A stretch of 64,000 nucleotides of DNA from Oscillospiraceae bacterium (lineage in GTDB: Bacteria > Bacillota > Clostridia > Oscillospirales > Oscillospiraceae). Where the stretch lies: contig CACZDN010000005.1 of assembly GCA_902779945.1 (NCBI GenBank), positions 124,001 through 188,000 on the forward strand, written 5' to 3'. The notes beneath the pieces are model-generated. The model had not been told where the DNA came from. It ran no database searches and saw only the letters and a program-made list of their open reading frames with translations. Shown in pieces: positions 1,036 through 59,738 of this stretch. Position 1 is the stretch's first letter, and every line of letters begins with the position of its first letter. Position numbers and translations under genes: made by a program.

Positions 1036-1120
1036 GAACTCATACAATATTGCTGATACTTCAGATTGATGAAAACTACCGTGCTCGGCGCCGCTCGCGG
1101 CGTCGGGAAGGAGGAGCCGT

Positions 1121-2719
1121 ATGAAAAAAGTCGGGGCCTTTTTCGTATATCTGATCGCCGTTGCGGTGATCCTCGCGATGGGCGGCCTGTTTGCCGGCTA
1201 TATGATCTCCAGCGGGGATAAAAACCTCAGCTACGTCTACGTCGGCGACGTGAATGTCAGCGGCCTGACCCGGGACGAGACGGAGGCGCTGCTTCTCAGC
1301 CGCGGCTGGGGGGAGCGGGAGAAGACGCCCCTCACCGTCACGACCTTCCGGGGGGAGAGCTTCACGGTCGATCCCGTGCGCACGGGCGTGACCGTCCCCT
1401 TTGAATCGCTGGTAGACAAGGCATACGCCGTCGGGCATGACGGAGACATGATCTCAAACCTTCTCACCGCGGTGCATGTATACCGGCATCCCGTGGATGT
1501 GAGCCGCGGCGACCGCAGCATCGACGTGGCCTATCTCGAGGGCCTGATCGACGACTGCCTTGCGCGCGTCCAGGCGGGCCTGAGCGGAAAAGAATATGAG
1601 ATCGACGCCAAATCCTCCCAGCTCCTCATGGTCAAGGGCGGGGACGATCTCAGAATCGACAGGACGGATTTTCTCAACACCATCCTCTACGCCCTCCAGA
1701 CCGGGGAGACGGAGCTGAGCTATACCAGGACCGGCGCCCAGCCGAAGGAGCCTGACTTTGAGGCGATCCACACCGCGCTCTGGCAGGAGCCCGTCAACGC
1801 ACGCTACTCGGACGACGGGACCTTCACCGTCATCGACGAGACGGTCGGCTGCCAGTTCGACGTGCAGCAGGCCAGAGAGCTCTGGGAGAAAGCGCAGCCG
1901 GGAGACACGGTCGCCATCCCGCTGGAGATCTCAAGCCCCGAATACACGGGGGACTATCTGCGCGGAATGCTGTACCGCGACCTGCTCGGCGCGTGCCTGA
2001 CCAAGTTCCCCAACTCCGGCGCCAACCGCCGCAGCAATCTCCAGCTCTGCGCCTCCAGGATCGACGGCTATATCGTCTACCCGGGCGAGACCTTCTCGTA
2101 TAACGAGGTTGTCGGCGCCCGCACCGAGGAGGCCGGCTTCCTGCCTGCGCCCGCCTACGTGGACGGCCAGGAGAAGGACGAGATCGGCGGCGGCGCCTGC
2201 CAGATATCCAGCACCCTCTACGCAGCGACGGCCTTTGCCGGTCTGGAGACCGTAGAGCGCTCAAACCACGTCTTCAAGGTCAGCTACATGCAGCGCGGCA
2301 CCGACGCGACCGTCACCATCCCCGCCGAGGGCAAGGTCATCGACTTCAAGTTCCGCAACAACAAGAGCTTCCCGGTCAAGATCGTCACCGACTTCAACAA
2401 CGACGAGAGCACCATCGGCATCGAGGTCTGGGGCACACTCACGCCTGGGGACTATATGCCCGTCGAGTTCGACAACAGCTCCGGCTGGGAGCACGACTAT
2501 GACCGGCACATCGACCCCGCCTATCCCGACCGGCCCGGCTACAAGATCAAGTTCCAGGTCGAAATGTGGGGCTTTGAGGACGATTTCTCCAGCGGCTACC
2601 GGACGCTGACCCACCGCCTCGTCATCGACCAGGACGGCAATATCGTCGAGGACAAGGTCCTGAATCCGGAGCTGCCCACCGGCGGCTACGCGCTGGACAC
2701 CTACTACCAGCACCCCTGA
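1121..2719 (+). CDS. VanW family protein with peptidoglycan-binding N-terminus
   Basis: A 532-residue protein. Residues 5-30 form one N-terminal membrane anchor. Residues of about 40-270 look like two PG_binding_4-type modules as in Bacillus YoaR. Residues of about 290-420 are a VanW domain, with the conserved run around YPGETFSYNEVVG and the GGGACQISSTLY motif. VanW proteins are envelope proteins often found near vancomycin resistance or wall genes, but their biochemistry is unsettled. The start ATG follows GGAAGGAGG. Ten bases separate it from the dUTPase-like gene, so the two are probably cotranscribed. The domain call is strong; a wall-related role is inferred. Confidence 0.9.
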   Translation: MKKVGAFFVYLIAVAVILAMGGLFAGYMISSGDKNLSYVYVGDVNVSGLTRDETEALLLSRGWGEREKTPLTVTTFRGESFTVDPVRTGVTVPFESLVDKAYAVGHDGDMISNLLTAVHVYRHPVDVSRGDRSIDVAYLEGLIDDCLARVQAGLSGKEYEIDAKSSQLLMVKGGDDLRIDRTDFLNTILYALQTGETELSYTRTGAQPKEPDFEAIHTALWQEPVNARYSDDGTFTVIDETVGCQFDVQQARELWEKAQPGDTVAIPLEISSPEYTGDYLRGMLYRDLLGACLTKFPNSGANRRSNLQLCASRIDGYIVYPGETFSYNEVVGARTEEAGFLPAPAYVDGQEKDEIGGGACQISSTLYAATAFAGLETVERSNHVFKVSYMQRGTDATVTIPAEGKVIDFKFRNNKSFPVKIVTDFNNDESTIGIEVWGTLTPGDYMPVEFDNSSGWEHDYDRHIDPAYPDRPGYKIKFQVEMWGFEDDFSSGYRTLTHRLVIDQDGNIVEDKVLNPELPTGGYALDTYYQHP

Positions 2720-6831: not shown

Positions 6832-9203
6832 ACGAGAAAACCTATTCGATCTATTTCGGCGGCAAATACCGGGAGGACTGGTCGGAGGACTATACGCTGT
6901 CCATCTGCTACGAAAACCGCCGCTGCGTCCTGGCCCGCCGGGAGGACGGAAAATGGATGCCTGCGGGCGGCGACAGGCAGATCTGCGCCCTGCTGGTCTC
7001 TCCCTTCTGCCCCCAGCTCATGCAGGACTACTTTCAGGCCGCGGCTACGGTCTATGCCGCGATCCACGACTGCCTCTCGCGAGGCCTGAAGCTGGAGCGG
7101 CTGAACGAGTGCTTCCAGGCGACCGGGATGCCTCTCGCCGCGCCGGAGCTCATGCGTCTTTTGATGGACGACTGCGGGATGCGCCTCGAGGAGGCCTACC
7201 AGATTACCGCCGCCTGCTGCGACGACCTGAGCTGCTCCGGCGTCCTTCCGCAGTATATCAAGGCATACCAGCCGCGCACGGCCCATGTGATCAGCATTTT
7301 GCGCCGCACGGCCGAGCGCACGCCCGCCCTGCTGCATGACTCCCGCCTGCCCGAATACCGCAGCCGCTACGGTGCCGTGCGCGTCGGACGGGAGCTGCGC
7401 CTTGCCTTCCGCTGCCGCGGCGGACAGATCGACCGTGCGGAGCTGGTGCTCTGGGGTGACGATTTTGAGCACAGCTGGTCCATGGAGCGGGAGGGCGACC
7501 TGTATTATGTAAACATCCCGACGCCGGAACAGCCCAAGGCCCTCTGGTACGCCTTCTATGTAGAGACCGAGAGCAGCGCCCACTGGCTGTGCCCGGATGC
7601 GACGGGCTATCTCGGGCGGCTCTTCCCGCGCAGGGAGGCCGGCTTCCGGCTGACCGTCTACGCGCCGGATTTCCAGACGCCCGCGTGGTTCCGCCGCAGC
7701 ATCATGTACCAGATCTTCCCGGACCGCTTCGGCTTCTCGAACGACGGCACGGCGGAGCGCGGCATCGAGTACCACGAGGCCCTCGGCCAGATCCCGGAGC
7801 TGCACAAGAGCCTGGACGAGCCGGTGCGCCATCTGCCGCGCAGCTATGAGACCTTCTACAACCCGGACGATTTCTACGGCGGCACTTTCCGCGGCATCGA
7901 GGGGAAGCTGCCCTATCTCAAGGCCCTCGGCGTGAGCTGCCTGTATCTCAACCCTATCGTGGAGGCGCGCTCCAACCACCGCTACGACACCTCCGACTAC
8001 ATGCGCCCGGACCCGATCCTCGGGACCCTGGAAGATTTCGAGCATCTCTGCGCACAGGCGAAGGAGCAGGGGATACGCATCATCCTCGACGGTGTGTACT
8101 CCCACACCGGCTGCGACAGCATCTATTTCGACCGCTACGGACACTACGGCGGAAACGGCGCGTGCAGCGGACCGGAATCGCCCTACTACTCCTGGTACGA
8201 CTTCCGGCATTTCCCGGATGAATACCGCTGCTGGTGGGGCTTTGCGGATCTGCCCGAGGTGAACGAGCATGATCCCCGCTGGCTGCGCTACATCGTCACG
8301 GGGGACGACAGCGTGATGAAGCTCTGGCTGCGGCGCGGGGCCTCCGGCTGGCGACTCGACGTGGCGGATGAGCTGCCGGACGATGTGCTGACTCTCATGC
8401 GCAAGGCCGTCAAGGAGGAGGACCCGGACGCCCCCATCGTCGGCGAGGTCTGGGAGGACGCCGTCATCAAGGAGAGCTACGGTGCAAGGCGCAGCTATGC
8501 CCTGGGCACGGCGCTCGACTCGGCCATGAATTACCCGCTGCGCACGGCGATCATGGACTTTGCCCACGGGGCCTGCAACGCTTACGAGCTGCGGGATTTC
8601 CTGATCGGCCAGCAGATGAACTACCCCTATCCCTTCTACTACGCGCTGATGAACCTGCTCGGCTCGCACGACGTGCCGCGGGTCAAGACCGTCCTGGCCT
8701 GCCCCTTCAACCTGCGTATGCTGAGCCGGGAGGACCAGCTCGCCGTCACCTATACGCAGGAGGCCCTGGAGAAGGCGGAGAGGCAGGAGATGATGTGCGC
8801 CGCACTGCAATTCGCGTTGCCCGGCGTTCCCAGCATCTACTACGGGGACGAGCAGGGCATGGAGGGCGTCGGCGACCCGTTCAACCGCGGCCCCTTCAGG
8901 GAGGGGAGCGAGACCCTGCACGAGCGCTACGCGCAGCTGAGCGCGATGCGCAACAGCGCCCCCGCCCTCTCGACCGGCGAGGCCCGCTTCTTTGCCGACA
9001 ACAGCGAGCTGCTGCTGGTCCTGCGCTATGTCACCGAGGGGCACGACGTCTTCGGCGAGCCGTGCGAAAACGGTGCCTATCTCTGTGTCGTCAACCGCGA
9101 CGAGAAGCCGCGCGCCTACAGCGTCGACTGTTCCGCCGCCGGCCTCGGTGTCTATACCGGCACAGCCGAGCCCGTCTCGGGCGAGATCATTCGTCTTGCG
9201 TAG
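6819..9203 (+). CDS. GH13 alpha-glucan hydrolase with phosphorylase-like N-terminal extension
   Basis: A 794-residue protein. From about residue 290 onward it is a GH13 (alpha-amylase/neopullulanase type) TIM barrel: MYQIFPDRF, the nucleophile region GWRLDVADEL (Asp about 514), acid/base GEVWEDA (Glu about 543) and GSHDVPR (Asp about 618). A beta-sandwich linker precedes it (about 170-290). The first about 155 residues do not belong to GH13: QDYFQAAATV, APELMRLLMDDCGMRLEEAY and the following segment resemble part of the N-terminal domain of alpha-glucan phosphorylase (PELMRILVD...DWDKAW), without its catalytic half. The gene overlaps glgA and is probably intracellular, as no signal peptide is present. 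It likely trims or debranches glycogen; the exact linkage specificity is unknown. Confidence 0.88.
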   Translation: MDAVNEKTYSIYFGGKYREDWSEDYTLSICYENRRCVLARREDGKWMPAGGDRQICALLVSPFCPQLMQDYFQAAATVYAAIHDCLSRGLKLERLNECFQATGMPLAAPELMRLLMDDCGMRLEEAYQITAACCDDLSCSGVLPQYIKAYQPRTAHVISILRRTAERTPALLHDSRLPEYRSRYGAVRVGRELRLAFRCRGGQIDRAELVLWGDDFEHSWSMEREGDLYYVNIPTPEQPKALWYAFYVETESSAHWLCPDATGYLGRLFPRREAGFRLTVYAPDFQTPAWFRRSIMYQIFPDRFGFSNDGTAERGIEYHEALGQIPELHKSLDEPVRHLPRSYETFYNPDDFYGGTFRGIEGKLPYLKALGVSCLYLNPIVEARSNHRYDTSDYMRPDPILGTLEDFEHLCAQAKEQGIRIILDGVYSHTGCDSIYFDRYGHYGGNGACSGPESPYYSWYDFRHFPDEYRCWWGFADLPEVNEHDPRWLRYIVTGDDSVMKLWLRRGASGWRLDVADELPDDVLTLMRKAVKEEDPDAPIVGEVWEDAVIKESYGARRSYALGTALDSAMNYPLRTAIMDFAHGACNAYELRDFLIGQQMNYPYPFYYALMNLLGSHDVPRVKTVLACPFNLRMLSREDQLAVTYTQEALEKAERQEMMCAALQFALPGVPSIYYGDEQGMEGVGDPFNRGPFREGSETLHERYAQLSAMRNSAPALSTGEARFFADNSELLLVLRYVTEGHDVFGEPCENGAYLCVVNRDEKPRAYSVDCSAAGLGVYTGTAEPVSGEIIRLA

Positions 9204-46330: not shown

Positions 46331-46468
46331 GTAGGGGGTCGATCCTCAGATCGACCCGAAGCCTCACCGTATCGGAGACGTGCGTATCAGGCGGCGACGC
46401 TTGCGCATCAAGGGATAATTGTACCGGATCACAGGTTTGCGGGCCGATCAGGGGATCGGCCCCTACGG
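46331..46468. repeat. Family-E GTCGATCC/GATCGAC repeat pair
   Basis: GTAGGGGGTCGATCCTCAGATC... (46331-46358) and its inverted partner GGGCCGATCAGGGGATCGGCCCCTAC (46441-46468). The same unit recurs at 50501, 50602, 51873 and 59588. It lies between the convergent chromate and YlbJ-like genes. Confidence 0.8.
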
Positions 46469-50009: not shown

Positions 50010-50489
50010 ATGCAGCACGAGGTTTTGATTTCCAGGGAGAAGCCCAATCTCGGCCACCGGGAGGCGGCGGGCCTTGTCAGAAAAGCCGTGGGCAGAGCGC
50101 TCGACGCGGAGGGGATCGCGGTCCCCTGTGTGGTAAGCGTTATGTTAACCGATGACGAGGGCATCCGCACTGTCAACAAAGAATTCCGAAACGTGGACAG
50201 CGCCACCGACGTGCTGAGCTTTCCGCTGAACGAGCTGAGCCCAGGCCGCTTCGACCCCGACGCCTGCGAGCGCGATCTGGACAGCGGTGCAGTCCTCCTC
50301 GGCGATATGATGATCTCCCTCGAGCGCTGCGAAAAGCAGGGCGAGGAGTTCGGACACGGCTTCGGACGTGAGATCCAGTACCTCACGGTCCACTCCGTCC
50401 TCCACCTTTTGGGCTATGACCATATAGACGAGGGCGAGATGAAAAAGCAGATGCGCGCCCAGGAGAAGGCCATCATGGGCGATTCATGA
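50010..50489 (+). CDS. ybeY: Endoribonuclease YbeY
   Basis: A 159-residue metal-dependent RNase for 16S rRNA 3'-end maturation and ribosome quality control. The zinc motif HSVLHLLGYDH (about 131-141) is complete; NKEFRNVDSATDVLSFPL is the other conserved run. ATG follows GAGAGG. In Bacillus the next genes would be dgkA, cdd and era; here an unrelated AT-rich gene intervenes before era. Confidence 0.96.
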   Translation: MQHEVLISREKPNLGHREAAGLVRKAVGRALDAEGIAVPCVVSVMLTDDEGIRTVNKEFRNVDSATDVLSFPLNELSPGRFDPDACERDLDSGAVLLGDMMISLERCEKQGEEFGHGFGREIQYLTVHSVLHLLGYDHIDEGEMKKQMRAQEKAIMGDS

Positions 50490-50500
50490 TATTTCTATCC

Positions 50501-50680
50501 CGCAGGGGTCGATCCCTGGATCGACCCGAAGCAGACTGCAACGGGAACGAGCGGGCCGATGAGGGCATCGGCCCCTACGGAGGCAAGACATAACGTAAAC
50601 GCCGTAGGGGTCGATCCCCAGATTGATCCAAAAAAACGGACAGAGAAACCGTAGGCCGATTAGAGCACCAGCCTCTATGG
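50501..50680. repeat. Two tandem family-E repeat pairs
   Basis: First pair 50501-50580 (GCAGGGGTCGATCCCTGG ... GGGCATCGGCCCCTACGG). Second, degenerate pair 50602-50680 (GTAGGGGTCGATCCCCAG ... GCACCAGCCTCTATGG) with the interior AAAAACGGACAGAGAA, which also occurs in the copy at 51873 on the other side of the AT-rich gene. Together they fill most of the 297-base gap after ybeY; a TATAAT at 50753-50758 lies upstream of the AT-rich gene. Confidence 0.8.
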
Positions 50681-50786
50681 AAGAAGCGCTTCCTATGCGC
50701 AAGCGACCGACCAAAGTTGAGTAAATCAACTATACTTTATCATTTAAAAGATTATAATAAACTGCTAAAAGAGGAGCATGTTGAAG

Positions 50787-51782
50787 ATGGCTGTTCATAT
50801 TTTTGCTGTTACTGAGCAAAACTACCAGATTTGTGTTCAGCGGGGCCTTGTTGCAGTTCCTTATCTTGATAGCTATAGGGGAGATACAAAAGATGCACTC
50901 CTTTCTCGTTTTGCGGGCATCAAAGAAGATGACTATGTACTAATGTATGTTACAAAACCTGCTATGCAAATACGGGGCGTTTGGCAAGTTGAAGGGGCTC
51001 CATTTTATGATACTACTCCTGTTTGGCCACAGCGTATTGACGATAAAACCCAAGAAACACATTTGTATCCATTACGCTGTCGCATTAAATGGTCTAACAC
51101 ATTTTCTAAATATTTAAGTAGAAATGACATTTTTGATTTACAAAGCACTGGAAAACTATGGACATGGGCATTTGAACGAGCTACAGGCACTAATTCATTG
51201 TTCTCTATTTCGAATGCCGAATTTCAAGTATTACTGAAAGAGTTCAGAAAGCTGAATCCTTTTTCTTCGACAAAAGGGATTATCCTTCAGCCATACCCAT
51301 ACCATACACCTGATATTTGTCAATATTTACATTATAAGAACGGAAATCCGTGGTATGAATATACGCTGATGGCACTATTGAATTCGTCTTTTTCAAGAGG
51401 TGAATTTACAGATATTTTTGGTAATTATACAGACTATCTCTGCTATGTGCCTAACAACTTCGGAAAAGAAATGGATTTTCTTCTTTTTTATGAGAATCCC
51501 AATAATTATAATGAAATATTATCCTATGACATACTCGAATTGAAACTAAATGCTTTTGATGAAGATGCTTTGCGACAGTTAATCGGTTATGAATCGTGGT
51601 TATTACAGAAAAGAGTATCCGGTGATTTAAAGATGGTACGTACTACAGCTATTGCAAAATCTTTTCCCACTAATGTAAAAGATTATGTTTCAAAAAGAAA
51701 TAAAATAGAAGGTAAACCAATTAAATTGTTAGAGTATTCCTACACAAACAATAAACTCAAACTTAATGAAGTAATTGTATAA
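50787..51782 (+). CDS. Candidate EVE/PUA-like domain-PD-(D/E)XK nuclease
   Basis: A 331-residue AT-rich orphan. Residues 1-105 resemble an EVE/YTH-like PUA fold, known to bind modified cytosine or adenine: FAVTEQNYQICVQRGLVAVP, DYVLMYVTKP and HLYPLRCRIKW. Residues of about 185-300 look like a DUF91/NucS-type nuclease: Asp230 in GKEMDFLLFY, E251-L-K253 in YDILELKL, then Q264xxxY268 in RQLIGYESWL (the RecB-type motif) and AIAKSF. The architecture suggests a modification-dependent restriction endonuclease. ATG at 50787 is ten bases after GAGGAG; TTG at 50781 and ATG at 50778 are alternatives. It is flanked by direct copies of a repeat, and is far more AT-rich than the neighbours, so it was probably acquired. 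The nuclease assignment is inference. Confidence 0.65.
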   Translation: MAVHIFAVTEQNYQICVQRGLVAVPYLDSYRGDTKDALLSRFAGIKEDDYVLMYVTKPAMQIRGVWQVEGAPFYDTTPVWPQRIDDKTQETHLYPLRCRIKWSNTFSKYLSRNDIFDLQSTGKLWTWAFERATGTNSLFSISNAEFQVLLKEFRKLNPFSSTKGIILQPYPYHTPDICQYLHYKNGNPWYEYTLMALLNSSFSRGEFTDIFGNYTDYLCYVPNNFGKEMDFLLFYENPNNYNEILSYDILELKLNAFDEDALRQLIGYESWLLQKRVSGDLKMVRTTAIAKSFPTNVKDYVSKRNKIEGKPIKLLEYSYTNNKLKLNEVIV

Positions 51783-51872
51783 CTAGTTTCTGAATATCCA
51801 ACACTATATAGATAAAAACAGCGTTTATAGTATGAGTAAAAAAATTAATCAACGGAAAGTGTGAAGCCTTCA

Positions 51873-51949
51873 CCGTAGGGGTCGATCCCCAGATCGACCC
51901 GAAAAACGGACAGAGAAGCAGCGGGCCGATGAAGGCATCGGCCCCTGCA
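51873..51949. repeat. Family-E repeat pair downstream of the AT-rich gene
   Basis: GTAGGGGTCGATCCCCAGATC ... GGCATCGGCCCCTGCAT with interior AAAAACGGACAGAGAA, close to the copy at 50602-50680 and in the same orientation. Confidence 0.85.
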
Positions 51950-52008
51950 TAAAAGACTTATCCTGTGTACAGGAGACCGGACAAAAGGGAAAACATAGGA
52001 GATCGCAT

Positions 52009-52896
<888 letters not shown>

Positions 52897-57760: not shown

Positions 57761-59593
57761 ATGGCAAATCCCGTATTGGACAATTTAAGAGACAAGGCCA
57801 ACCGACTGCCGCTGCTGCCGGGCGTGTACATCATGCTCGACGCGCAGGGGCAGGTCATCTATGTGGGCAAGGCCAAGAAGCTGAAAAACCGCGTGAGCAG
57901 CTATTTCCACGGCGAGCATCTGCCCAAGGTCGCCGCCATGGTGGAGAAGGTGCGGGACTTCAACGTCATCGTCGCGGGGAGCGAGTTTGAGGCGCTGGTG
58001 CTGGAAAACTCCCTTATCAAGCGCCACAAGCCGCACTACAACATCCTGCTCAAGGACGACAAGGGCTACCCCTTTATCCGCCTGGACATGCGGGAGGAGT
58101 ACCCCACTCTCTCGGTCGAGAGCCGCGTGCTCAAGGACGGCGCGCGCTACTTCGGCCCCTTCGGCGGCAGGAGCCTGACCTTTGACATCATCACCACCGT
58201 GTCAAAGGCGCTGCTGCTGCCGGACTGCACGCGCAAATTCCCGCGCGACATCGGCAAGGAGCGCCCCTGTCTCAATTACCACATGGGCACGTGCGCGGGC
58301 TGGTGCCTCCGGGACAGCGACGCGGAGGACTACCGCCGCCGCATGGCCCAGGCCGCCCTCATCCTGGAGGGCAAGAGCCGGGAGCTCATCGAGGACCTGC
58401 GTGCCCGGATGGAGCAGGCGGCGGAGGAGCTGCGCTTTGAGCGGGCCGCCGAGCTGCGCGACAGGCTGCGCGCCGTCGAGGGGCTTGCCAACAGGCAGCG
58501 CGTGATCGCCACCGCCTTTGCCGACACGGACGCGGTGGGCTTCTGCCGCGGCGCGAAGACCTGCTTCACCGTGCTGCACTTTGTAGACGGCAATCTCGTC
58601 GGCAAGGATACCGAGATGATGGAGGAGCCCATCGAGGAAGACAGCGACGCACTGTCCGGCCTCGTGCGCCAGTACTATACCGCGCACCGCGGCGGCTGGC
58701 CGAAGTCCATCCTGCTCCCCCTGGAGATCGAGGATGCGGCCGATCTGGAGGAGCTGTTGAGCCAGGTCTCCGGCCGGCGTATCTATATCGAGACGCCGAA
58801 GCGGGGCGAGCGTATGCGCCTCATCGAGAGCGCGGCCCTCAACGCGAGAGAGGAGATCCAGCGCCGTACCACGCACGAGCAGCGCCGCAGCAAGACTCTC
58901 GAATGGCTGCAGAGGGCGCTGGAACTGGAGAGCTTTCCACACCGCATCGAGGCCTTCGACATTTCAAACCTCGGGGCGACCGGCATTGTCGCCGCGATGA
59001 CCGTCCATGTGGACGGCAAGCCTCTCAAGCGCGACTACCGCAGATTCCGTATGCGCGACCTCGACGGCCCGGACGACTACGCCAGCATGTACCAGGCCGT
59101 GACCCGGCGGTTCAGGCACTACCTCGAAAAGGACGAGAAGTTTGCCGACTGCCCGGACTTGCTTCTCATCGACGGCGGAGACGTCCACGCGGCGACGGCG
59201 GAAAAGGCGCTGCGTGATCTCGGTCTCTCGGTCCCCGTCTTCGGCATGGTCAAGGACGACAGACACCGCACCCGCGCCCTCATCCGCTCCGACAGCCGCG
59301 AGATCGGCATCAAGGGCAATCAGGCGGTTTTTGCCCTCGTCGGCGCGATCCAGGAGGAGACCCACCGCTTCGCCATTGAGTACCAGCGCTCCCTGCGCAG
59401 GGAGGGCCTCGCCTCGAAGCTGGACGAGATACCCGGCGTGGGCGAAAAGAGGAGAAACGACCTCATCAAGAGCTTCCAGTCGCTCAAGGCCATCCGCGAG
59501 GCGAGCGCCGAACAGCTCGCCCTCGTGGTGCCGAAAAACACCGCACAGGCGGTCTATGAGTATTTTCATAAGCCTGAGGAGGAAACACCGTAG
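57761..59593 (+). CDS. uvrC: Excinuclease ABC subunit C
   Basis: A 610-residue UvrC. GIY-YIG nuclease domain (about 15-95; GVYIMLDAQGQVIYVGKAKKL), cysteine-rich cluster segment CLNYHMGTCAGWC, UVR domain (about 205-240), RNase H-like second nuclease domain (FDISNLGATGIVAAM, LLLIDGGDVHAA) and two HhH motifs at the end (IPGVGEKRRNDLIKSF). It makes both incisions in nucleotide excision repair. Only the ATG at 57761 gives the family's N-terminus. There is no strong ribosome site (TGAGGTGCCC is closest). Confidence 0.96.
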   Translation: MANPVLDNLRDKANRLPLLPGVYIMLDAQGQVIYVGKAKKLKNRVSSYFHGEHLPKVAAMVEKVRDFNVIVAGSEFEALVLENSLIKRHKPHYNILLKDDKGYPFIRLDMREEYPTLSVESRVLKDGARYFGPFGGRSLTFDIITTVSKALLLPDCTRKFPRDIGKERPCLNYHMGTCAGWCLRDSDAEDYRRRMAQAALILEGKSRELIEDLRARMEQAAEELRFERAAELRDRLRAVEGLANRQRVIATAFADTDAVGFCRGAKTCFTVLHFVDGNLVGKDTEMMEEPIEEDSDALSGLVRQYYTAHRGGWPKSILLPLEIEDAADLEELLSQVSGRRIYIETPKRGERMRLIESAALNAREEIQRRTTHEQRRSKTLEWLQRALELESFPHRIEAFDISNLGATGIVAAMTVHVDGKPLKRDYRRFRMRDLDGPDDYASMYQAVTRRFRHYLEKDEKFADCPDLLLIDGGDVHAATAEKALRDLGLSVPVFGMVKDDRHRTRALIRSDSREIGIKGNQAVFALVGAIQEETHRFAIEYQRSLRREGLASKLDEIPGVGEKRRNDLIKSFQSLKAIREASAEQLALVVPKNTAQAVYEYFHKPEEETP

Positions 59594-59738
59594 GGGTCGA
59601 TCCCCAGATCGACCCGCGCGTGAGAACGGGTGTTTTACGGATTCGCCGGGGCAAATACGCAGACTGAGGCGGTACTGCCGGGCTGATCAGGGGATCAGCC
59701 CCTACGGAGTTTGACCTACGGGTTTCGCCGTAGGGGCG
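59588..59738. repeat. Family-E repeat pair
   Basis: CCGTAGGGGTCGATCCCCAG (59588) and the inverted GGATCAGCCCCTACGGAG with a third GCCGTAGGGGCGG at the right. It overlaps the last codons of uvrC, so the repeat begins inside the gene's end. Confidence 0.8.

What the first reader, a model, noticed from the sequence alone, without database searches (positions are those of the whole stretch)
50501..51949. AT-rich EVE-like/PD-(D/E)XK protein flanked by direct repeats inside a conserved operon
Between ybeY and era, normally adjacent or separated by dgkA/cdd, sits one strongly AT-rich gene. Its N-terminus resembles an EVE/YTH-like PUA domain, which in defence proteins reads modified bases. Its C-terminus shows Asp230, E251-L-K253 and Q264xxxY268, the order expected for a PD-(D/E)XK nuclease of the NucS/RecB type. 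The copies of the same repeat at 50602-50680 and 51873-51949 share an unusual interior sequence (AAAAACGGACAGAGAA) and lie in the same direction, as expected if the gene came in by recombination between repeats. This could be a single-gene modification-dependent restriction system.
Basis: partly seen in the sequence, partly recalled or inferred. Interest (0 to 1): 0.75.

Follow-up and report, generated by a model that had tools for sequence, protein, structure and literature searches.

The report
Lone predicted modification-dependent restriction gene
A foreign-looking, AT-rich gene sitting alone between two housekeeping genes most likely encodes a one-protein DNA-cutting defence enzyme that reads chemically modified bases; this is a new, unannotated family of a kind already predicted in print, so it is useful but not revolutionary.

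Summary
One AT-rich ORF (best start 50787, 331 aa, GC 0.35 against 0.64 around it) lies between ybeY and era. In the 28 same-genus relatives where the gap could be measured it is 2-390 bp.

The C-terminal half looks like a NucS-like PD-(D/E)XK nuclease (extended family against NucS: hhalign 86%, shuffles at most 0.3%; window clade alone 15%). The N-terminal half is EVE-like on weaker evidence: one NCBIfam model, no Pfam EVE match. Both AlphaFold models were of low confidence (mean pLDDT 35 and 45), so no fold was tested.

Relatives are rare; 4 of 10 lie in defence or mobile surroundings. Best reading: a single-gene type IV, modification-dependent restriction enzyme. EVE-PD(D/E)XK enzymes were already predicted by Bell et al. 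2020.

The flanking repeats are real but belong to a dispersed two-hairpin family in which other copies also share interiors. A second homologue is also bounded by a duplicated two-hairpin element of unrelated sequence, which leaves cassette-like movement open.

The parts
50010..50489 (+). ybeY (left neighbour, resident)
   Evidence: 72-84% identity to the ybeY of 28 same-genus loci
50500..50580 (+). element A: full two-hairpin dispersed repeat with a different interior
   Evidence: DNA fold z -4.45
50602..50681 (+). element B: decayed copy, shares its interior 15-mer with C, hairpins lost
   Evidence: fold z -0.98
50682..51872 (+). AT-rich insert (gene plus short leader and trailer) between B and C
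   Evidence: composition; gap of 2-390 bp in the 28 relatives where it could be measured
50770..50776 (+). likely ribosome binding site AGAGGAG
   Evidence: read from the sequence; inference
50787..51782 (+). EVE-like / NucS-like PD-(D/E)XK protein, 331 aa (ORF can be opened from 50778)
50790..51245 (+). N-terminal EVE-like (PUA superfamily) putative base-reading domain; limits approximate
   Evidence: NCBIfam PRK00809: window 5.3e-5, L002 0.014, L009 0.016 over model positions 4-142 of 146; Pfam EVE not met
51255..51779 (+). C-terminal NucS-like PD-(D/E)XK nuclease domain
   Evidence: window clade and relatives; NucS hits of relatives
51357..51359 (+). E191, candidate helix-A glutamate of the nuclease core
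   Evidence: invariant in 6 of 6 sequences of A3; not invariant when L020 and L021 are aligned
51474..51476 (+). D230, motif II aspartate
   Evidence: invariant in 6 of 6; not invariant in the alignment with L020 and L021
51537..51545 (+). E251-x-K253, motif III
   Evidence: invariant in 6 of 6; its counterpart also in 4 of 4 of A4
51576..51590 (+). Q264-xxx-Y268, QxxxY motif
   Evidence: invariant in 6 of 6; its counterpart also in 4 of 4 of A4
51873..51950 (+). element C: intact two-hairpin copy, same interior 15-mer as B
   Evidence: fold z -7.28
52009..52896 (+). era (right neighbour, resident)
   Evidence: found in 92 of 102 genus genomes, the own included

Best explanation
The gene encodes a one-protein, NTP-independent, modification-dependent (type IV) restriction endonuclease. 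The N-terminal EVE-like domain would flip a modified base, probably a modified cytosine, out of incoming DNA. The C-terminal NucS-like PD-(D/E)XK domain, probably acting as a dimer, would then cut that DNA using E191, D230, E251, K253 and Q264. Unmodified host DNA is ignored, so no methyltransferase partner is needed. The gene is a horizontally gained single-gene island at ybeY-era, next to or between copies of a resident two-hairpin repeat. Shown here: the gene, its foreign composition, its absence from the relatives examined, the nuclease motif set and the NucS similarity of the extended family, a codon pattern of purifying selection. Inferred: base reading, cleavage, dimerisation, phage defence.
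For: Nuclease half: E191, D230, E251, K253, Q264 and Y268 invariant in 6 of 6 aligned proteins, two of them only 19-20% identical to the window. NCBIfam NucS is hit by 4 of 9 members scanned: L003 7.7e-4 and L002 0.19, L020 0.0078 and L007 0.018. L003 hits PDB NucS 2vld at 0.0037 and Pfam NucS_C at 0.0035. hhalign against six NucS proteins: extended C-terminal set 86.0%, E 5.2e-6, 30 column shuffles at most 0.3%; window clade alone 14.8%, shuffles at most 0.6%. N-terminal half: NCBIfam PRK00809 hit by 3 of 9 members, the window at 5.3e-5, L002 and L009 over nearly the whole model; one of four Pfam-EVE proteins scanned hits the same model at 6.1e-6. Context: homologue fragment in G916 beside BrxB/BrxC, AbiEi/AbiEii and a serine recombinase; G050 copy beside a weak TIR-like gene, ParDE and MobC; distant relative L003 directly after a D12 adenine methyltransferase; L021, a relative of L003, near DrmA/B/C-like genes, two cytosine methyltransferases and a Sau3AI-like gene. 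Selection: second codon positions differ 0.12-0.22 against 0.53-0.64 at third positions over 6 pairs.
Against: No Pfam match above cut-off and no Pfam EVE match. No PADLOC match and no PHROG match. The window protein itself hits no NucS model. hhalign of the window clade's N-terminus against three EVE sets gives 0.8-9.3%; against the set used for shuffles it gives 4.2%, and 1 of 20 shuffles was higher (8.9%). Only the full six-protein set (57.0, 24.8 and 0.9% against the three sets) and L020 (49.2, 22.6, 1.2%) score more, and no shuffles were run for these. With L020 and L021 aligned, D and the first E are not invariant. AlphaFold mean pLDDT 34.8 and 44.6; Foldseek gave nothing at E <= 0.001. 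The window copy has no defence neighbours, and 6 of the 10 other carriers or relatives have none that is clear. The link from the window clade to L003 and L016 is weak in single searches (7.2e-4; 5.6e-4).
Confidence: 0.6

Rival explanations
1. A type II-like, sequence-specific restriction endonuclease: the N-terminal PUA-like domain reads an unmodified sequence and a methyltransferase elsewhere in the genome protects the host.
For: The distant relative L003 lies directly downstream of a D12 adenine methyltransferase. L021 lies near two cytosine methyltransferases.
Against: No methyltransferase is adjacent in the window, and I recognised none by eye among the ORFs listed around L007, L009 and L010. 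The gene stands alone at ybeY-era, which is hard for an enzyme that needs a partner. The window genome was not searched for methyltransferases.
Confidence: 0.16
2. A reader-guided nuclease that acts on RNA or on damaged or mismatched DNA (NucS/EndoMS-like repair) and is not a phage defence enzyme.
For: The nuclease half of the extended family is closest to NucS. PUA/ASCH-superfamily domains are generally tied to translation and bind RNA (PMC7641849, passage seen).
Against: The N-terminal halves do not match NucS (0.1-0.2%). Distribution is rare (2 of 199 genomes, the own included), unlike a repair gene. Several relatives have defence or mobile neighbours.
Confidence: 0.1
3. A decaying, non-functional passenger gene with no present role.
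For: Three clade copies are broken in the nuclease half: ORFs of 223, 212 and 208 aa in L010, G916 and G1123. Element B is decayed.
Against: The window copy is intact, keeps the catalytic set, and the four intact copies show a codon-position pattern of purifying selection.
Confidence: 0.08

Closest known systems
EVE-PD(D/E)XK putative type IV restriction enzymes (Bell, Wolf and Koonin 2020, PMC7641849; passages, section 9)
   Same: Same core architecture, modification-reader plus PD-(D/E)XK nuclease in one chain; the paper says that many defence EVE domains diverge and were found only with methods such as HHpred
VcaM4I, EVE-HNH modification-dependent endonuclease (PMC7897488; abstract, sections 18, 19 and 27)
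   Same: N-terminal EVE reader that flips 5mC/5hmC, C-terminal nuclease, NTP-independent
   Different: HNH nuclease instead of PD-(D/E)XK; EVE fold proven by crystal structure
NucS/EndoMS endonuclease (PF01939, PDB 2vld and 5gke)
   Same: ELK motif and QxxxY of the catalytic domain; weak hits in several members
   Different: Below the family cut-off; the N-terminal half does not match; NucS is a mismatch or branched-DNA nuclease (recalled)
CMoRE, GIY-YIG single-component type IV enzyme (PMC12923530; abstract and passages)
   Same: Single-gene, two-domain, modified-cytosine-dependent anti-phage nuclease
   Different: Different nuclease (GIY-YIG) and reversed domain order
REP/BIME-type dispersed palindromic repeats (recalled)
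   Same: Two hairpin arms around a variable spacer, many copies in the genome
   Different: Sequence not compared with known REP families; no associated transposase was looked for

Membership tests
[quoted passage not shown]
   PRK00809 hits in 3 of 9 members, the same model hit by 1 of 4 Pfam-EVE proteins; no Pfam EVE hit, hhalign weak for the window clade
[quoted passage not shown]
   by sequence only:
[quoted passage not shown]
   window neighbours are ybeY and era; by eye none among the ORFs listed around L007, L009, L010 or L004; not true of the distant relative L003; the rest of the genome was not searched
[quoted passage not shown]
   needs bench work
EVE domain (PF01878) | score above Pfam's cut-off | tested here: not met
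   one search lists no EVE match up to E 10; one search finds none in the own genome at E <= 0.01. Hence 'EVE-like', not filed as EVE
EVE domain (PF01878) | five-stranded PUA sheet with an extra strand beside beta 1 | tested here: inconclusive
   AlphaFold mean pLDDT 34.8
NucS/EndoMS (PF01939) | score above Pfam's cut-off and NucS N-terminal domain | tested here: not met
   best member L003 17.8 bits against a cut-off of 24; N-terminal halves do not match NucS (0.1-0.2%)
PD-(D/E)XK superfamily | ordered E...D...(D/E)xK...QxxxY motifs | tested here: met
   ExK and QxxxY also in L020 and L021
PD-(D/E)XK superfamily | alpha-beta-beta-beta-alpha-beta core fold | tested here: inconclusive
   low-confidence model, pTM 0.46; Foldseek found nothing at E <= 0.001
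Known PADLOC defence systems | match to a PADLOC model | tested here: not met
   0 families up to E 10

The most novel reading that the evidence does not exclude
This restriction gene moves as a transposase-free, single-gene cassette that lodges at two-hairpin palindromic elements and leaves the whole element (about 80 nt) duplicated on both sides. In G000 it lies between REP-like copies B and C. In G050 the 61%-identical homologue lies between two 85-nt copies (87% identical) of an unrelated two-hairpin element that stands once, upstream of mobC, in six sister genomes whose locus lacks the gene. A nicking enzyme that recognises folded DNA (a relaxase at oriT-like sites, for instance) could do this. 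Against it: L007, L009 and the three broken copies have no such flanks, and the ybeY-era gap of a relative holds tandem repeats with no insert (L064).
Probability: 0.12. Interest if true: 0.72.

Novelty: new member of a known kind. Interest (0 to 1): 0.42.

Why it matters
If right, it adds an unannotated, compact modification-dependent nuclease family of Clostridia, which the Pfam, NCBIfam, PADLOC and PHROG libraries searched here do not name, with a NucS-like cutter attached to an EVE-like reader. Such enzymes are useful for mapping modified bases and bear on how these bacteria may counter phages with modified genomes. The paired hairpin-element duplications, if more cases are found, would make a concrete question testable: how single defence genes move without a transposase.

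Tried and rejected
Structure: AlphaFold on five full-length sequences and on four C-terminal domains gave mean pLDDT 34.8 and 44.6. Foldseek on the second gave 281 matches at E <= 10 and none at E <= 0.001; I draw nothing from it. A deeper alignment with the distant relatives was not submitted, because they came from tools that the predictor's rule does not list.

Relatives in phages and plasmids: none in viral contigs (7 scans), none in phages, none in plasmids with the window or L002 protein; two haloarchaeal plasmid hits with L003. The first scan of genome contigs found nothing, the second four loci. The mobC piece with its element found only short mobC matches in 6 plasmids, not the element.

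Weak Pfam hit Sa_NUDIX (0.06) and PDB profile or sequence hits such as 1ylm, U1A and SopA: not significant, rejected as chance. G1136 hit (E 0.0029, one stop inside): rejected; it lies opposite a 422-aa ORF on the other strand. A BREX paper searched for EVE and NucS gave nothing on this architecture (PMC12839542, passages).

B and C as proof of insertion by recombination: rejected as proof, because other two-arm copies share interiors as well and a relative shows tandem repeats in this gap without an insert (L064). A promoter and terminator scan was uninformative (4 promoter-like sites, 4.5 expected).

Confidence in the best explanation went from 0.62 to 0.60, and the type II rival from 0.15 to 0.16, for the last two.

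Full report
What is in the sequence. Between ybeY (50010-50489) and era (52009-52896) lies one ORF on the + strand. It can be opened from ATG 50778, but the better start is ATG 50787: AGAGGAG at 50770-50776 ends 10 nt away and the relatives have the same MAVHIF/MAVHVF/MAAHIF start region. The protein then has 331 residues. The gene has GC 0.35 and GC3 0.27, the 5-kb flanks 0.64.

It is an insertion. Among 102 same-genus genomes searched with Era, 92 have a match, the own included. Loci were fetched for the 30 best; the other 62 were not looked at. ybeY and era could both be placed in 28 of the 29 fetched relatives (L062 could not be resolved), and the gap is 2-390 bp in all 28, too short for this gene. 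Protein searches found it in 2 of 199 relatives, the own and G050 (61% identity); in 2 of 398 genomes of the phylum, the own and a partial, weak match in G570; in 1 of 394 of the order, the own; and in 5 of 391 of the class at E <= 0.01. Besides the own, those five are two broken copies (G916, G1123), one distant relative (G1088, L016) and one that I rejected (G1136). The second scan of genome contigs gave L007 (Lachnospiraceae), L008 (the G050 contig), L009 (Ruminococcus) and L010 (Clostridia). In L009 the gene sits alone after a gatB-like gene (named by eye), at GC 0.36 in a 0.54 surrounding.

The C-terminal half. Alignment A3 (window, L007, L008, L009, and the distant L003 and L016, the last two 19-20% identical to the window) has 29 invariant columns. 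Among them are E191, D230, E251, K253, Q264 and Y268 in the 331-residue numbering (one search prints them 3 higher). This is the motif order of a PD-(D/E)XK nuclease of RecB/NucS type (motif names recalled). In a second alignment, A4 (L003, L016, and the haloarchaeal L020 and L021), ExK and QxxxY stay invariant in 4 of 4, but the aspartate and the first glutamate do not. Four of nine members scanned hit the NCBIfam NucS model among 18950: L003 7.7e-4 and L002 (the G050 copy) 0.19, L020 0.0078 and L007 0.018. The window, L009, L010, L016 and L021 do not. L003 hits Pfam NucS_C at 0.0035 and PDB NucS 2vld at 0.0037. Against six NucS proteins from plasmids (6 of the 7 regions fetched; the split gene in L129 was left out), hhalign gives 86.0% (E 5.2e-6) for the extended C-terminal set of seven, 83.5 and 86.6% for two distant sets, 14.8% for the window clade alone, and 7.7-61.1% for full-length sets. 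Thirty column shuffles gave at most 0.3% (extended set) and 0.6% (clade). The window clade is therefore linked to NucS mainly through its intermediates.

The N-terminal half. The window protein's only NCBIfam hit is PRK00809, 5.3e-5 over residues 46-112 (counted from 50778), far below its cut-off. L002 (0.014) and L009 (0.016, model positions 4-142 of 146) hit the same model; L003, L007, L010, L016, L020 and L021 do not. The model is labelled only 'hypothetical protein', so I tested it: of four Pfam-EVE-bearing proteins scanned, one (L025, a standalone EVE protein) hits it, at 6.1e-6. hhalign with three EVE sets gives 9.3, 0.8 and 4.2% for the window clade's N-terminus. Twenty shuffles, run only against the third set, reached 8.9% once and otherwise at most 1.5%. 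The full six-protein set gives 24.8, 0.9 and 57.0%, and L020 49.2, 1.2 and 22.6%, without shuffle controls. The printed clade alignment (4.2%) pairs the EVE stretches GDLVLVY, VGVAEV and WELVR...RLSV with the window's DDYVLMY, RGVWQV and WTWAFER...LFSI. Pfam does not call EVE. I therefore call it EVE-like.

No structure. AlphaFold gave mean pLDDT 34.8 for the whole protein (5 sequences) and 44.6 for the C-terminal domain (4 sequences). Foldseek on the latter found nothing at E <= 0.001.

Neighbourhoods. Of ten other carriers or relatives, four have clear defence or mobile neighbours. G050 (L004/L008): a TIR-like ORF (Pfam CAP12-PCTIR_TIR 6.1e-4, below its cut-off; PADLOC TIR effectors at best 2.4e-6), Phd/YefM-ParE and MobC. 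G916 (L017): the copy is broken (212-aa ORF and a 79-aa piece) and lies in a stretch with BrxC, BrxB, AbiEi, AbiEii and a serine recombinase. L003 (distant) starts just after a D12 adenine methyltransferase. L021 (a relative of L003 at 2e-13) lies near DrmA-, DrmB- and DrmC-like genes, a Sau3AI-type gene and two cytosine methyltransferases. L007 is less clear: an HTH_17 ORF upstream and a Schlafen/AlbA_2 protein downstream that also hits part of a PADLOC pAgo model at 3.7e-39. L009, L010, G1123 (L018), L016 and L020 show no defence neighbour that I could recognise by eye; neither does the window copy. The four intact clade members show a codon-position pattern of purifying selection (0.12-0.22 at second against 0.53-0.64 at third positions).

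The repeats. Elements A, B and C are copies of a two-hairpin repeat found widely in the genome: 47 arm matches with up to 3 mismatches, none for the reversed control pattern. The 15-mer in the interior of B and C is found nowhere else in the genome. But of 15 two-arm copies examined (A, B, C and 12 from the 30 loci fetched of the 47 matches), five other pairs have interior scores at least as high as B-C, so interiors are copied within the family without any gene between. B has lost its fold (z -0.98), while C (-7.28) and A (-4.45) keep theirs. One relative (L064) shows tandem repeats of another kind in the same gap without an insert (by eye).

A parallel in G050. There the homologue lies between two 85-nt direct repeats, 87% identical, each with two hairpins (DNA fold z -7.32 and -4.77), unrelated in sequence to those of the window. 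A 24-nt interior pattern (up to 2 mismatches) occurs at 8 places in 7 of 102 genomes: twice in G050, at the two flanks, and once in each of six others. In those six the order is ParD-ParE, a variable stretch, the element, MobC, without the restriction gene. The variable stretch holds a small ORF in four (L132, L133, L134, L138; remnants in L135 and L136) and a 114-aa ORF in four (L132, L135, L136, L138). No further copy was found in 400 kb of G050's 3.3 Mb. The element's place just upstream of mobC suggests oriT; that is inference. Recombination between oriT sites by a relaxase is known (PMC4902927, abstract read). L007, L009, L010, L017 and L018 have no repeat pair of 22 nt or more flanking the gene in the stretches searched. 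Two cases are suggestive, not proof.

Interpretation. EVE-PD(D/E)XK proteins were predicted as type IV enzymes in 2020 (PMC7641849, section 9), so the kind is known. The searches listed no paper that pairs such enzymes with NucS ('nucs' count 0 in all 7 listed; 'nucs-like' 0 in all 10 listed). That is limited to the open papers held and to those terms.

Limits. No activity, base preference or structure is shown. The own genome was not searched for methyltransferases, so a type II pairing is not excluded.

Noticed in passing
L008 6346-6431, 7541-7626 and about 7951-7980: An 85-nt two-hairpin element upstream of mobC, single-copy in six sister genomes and duplicated around the restriction gene in G050, with a half copy after mobC; may be an oriT beside a variable cargo site between parDE and mobC.
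   Followed up: partly
L132, L135, L136, L138 at about 1109-1453 (reverse strand of L135, L136 and L138): An unnamed 114-aa ORF (MNDYLNSLEPYKD... type) occupies the parDE-mobC interval in four of six sister genomes where G050 has the restriction gene.
   Followed up: no
L004 4534-5535: A 333-aa ORF with a weak CAP12/Pycsar-type TIR domain close to the G050 homologue; possible defence effector.
   Followed up: partly
L010 7989-8660; L017 8752-9617; L018 4552-5178: Three clade copies are broken in the nuclease half while the EVE-like half stays open (ORFs of 223, 212 and 208 aa); two are in one genus, so perhaps two events.
   Followed up: partly
window 46335-46468, 50500-50681, 51873-51950, 59588-59616 and elsewhere in the genome: Dispersed two-hairpin repeat family with variable spacer (47 arm matches in the genome), some spacers shared by distant copies; no transposase was looked for.
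   Followed up: partly
L003 799-1965 and L005 4288-6363: A distant EVE-like/NucS-like protein directly downstream of a D12 adenine methyltransferase, a candidate restriction-modification pair.
   Followed up: partly
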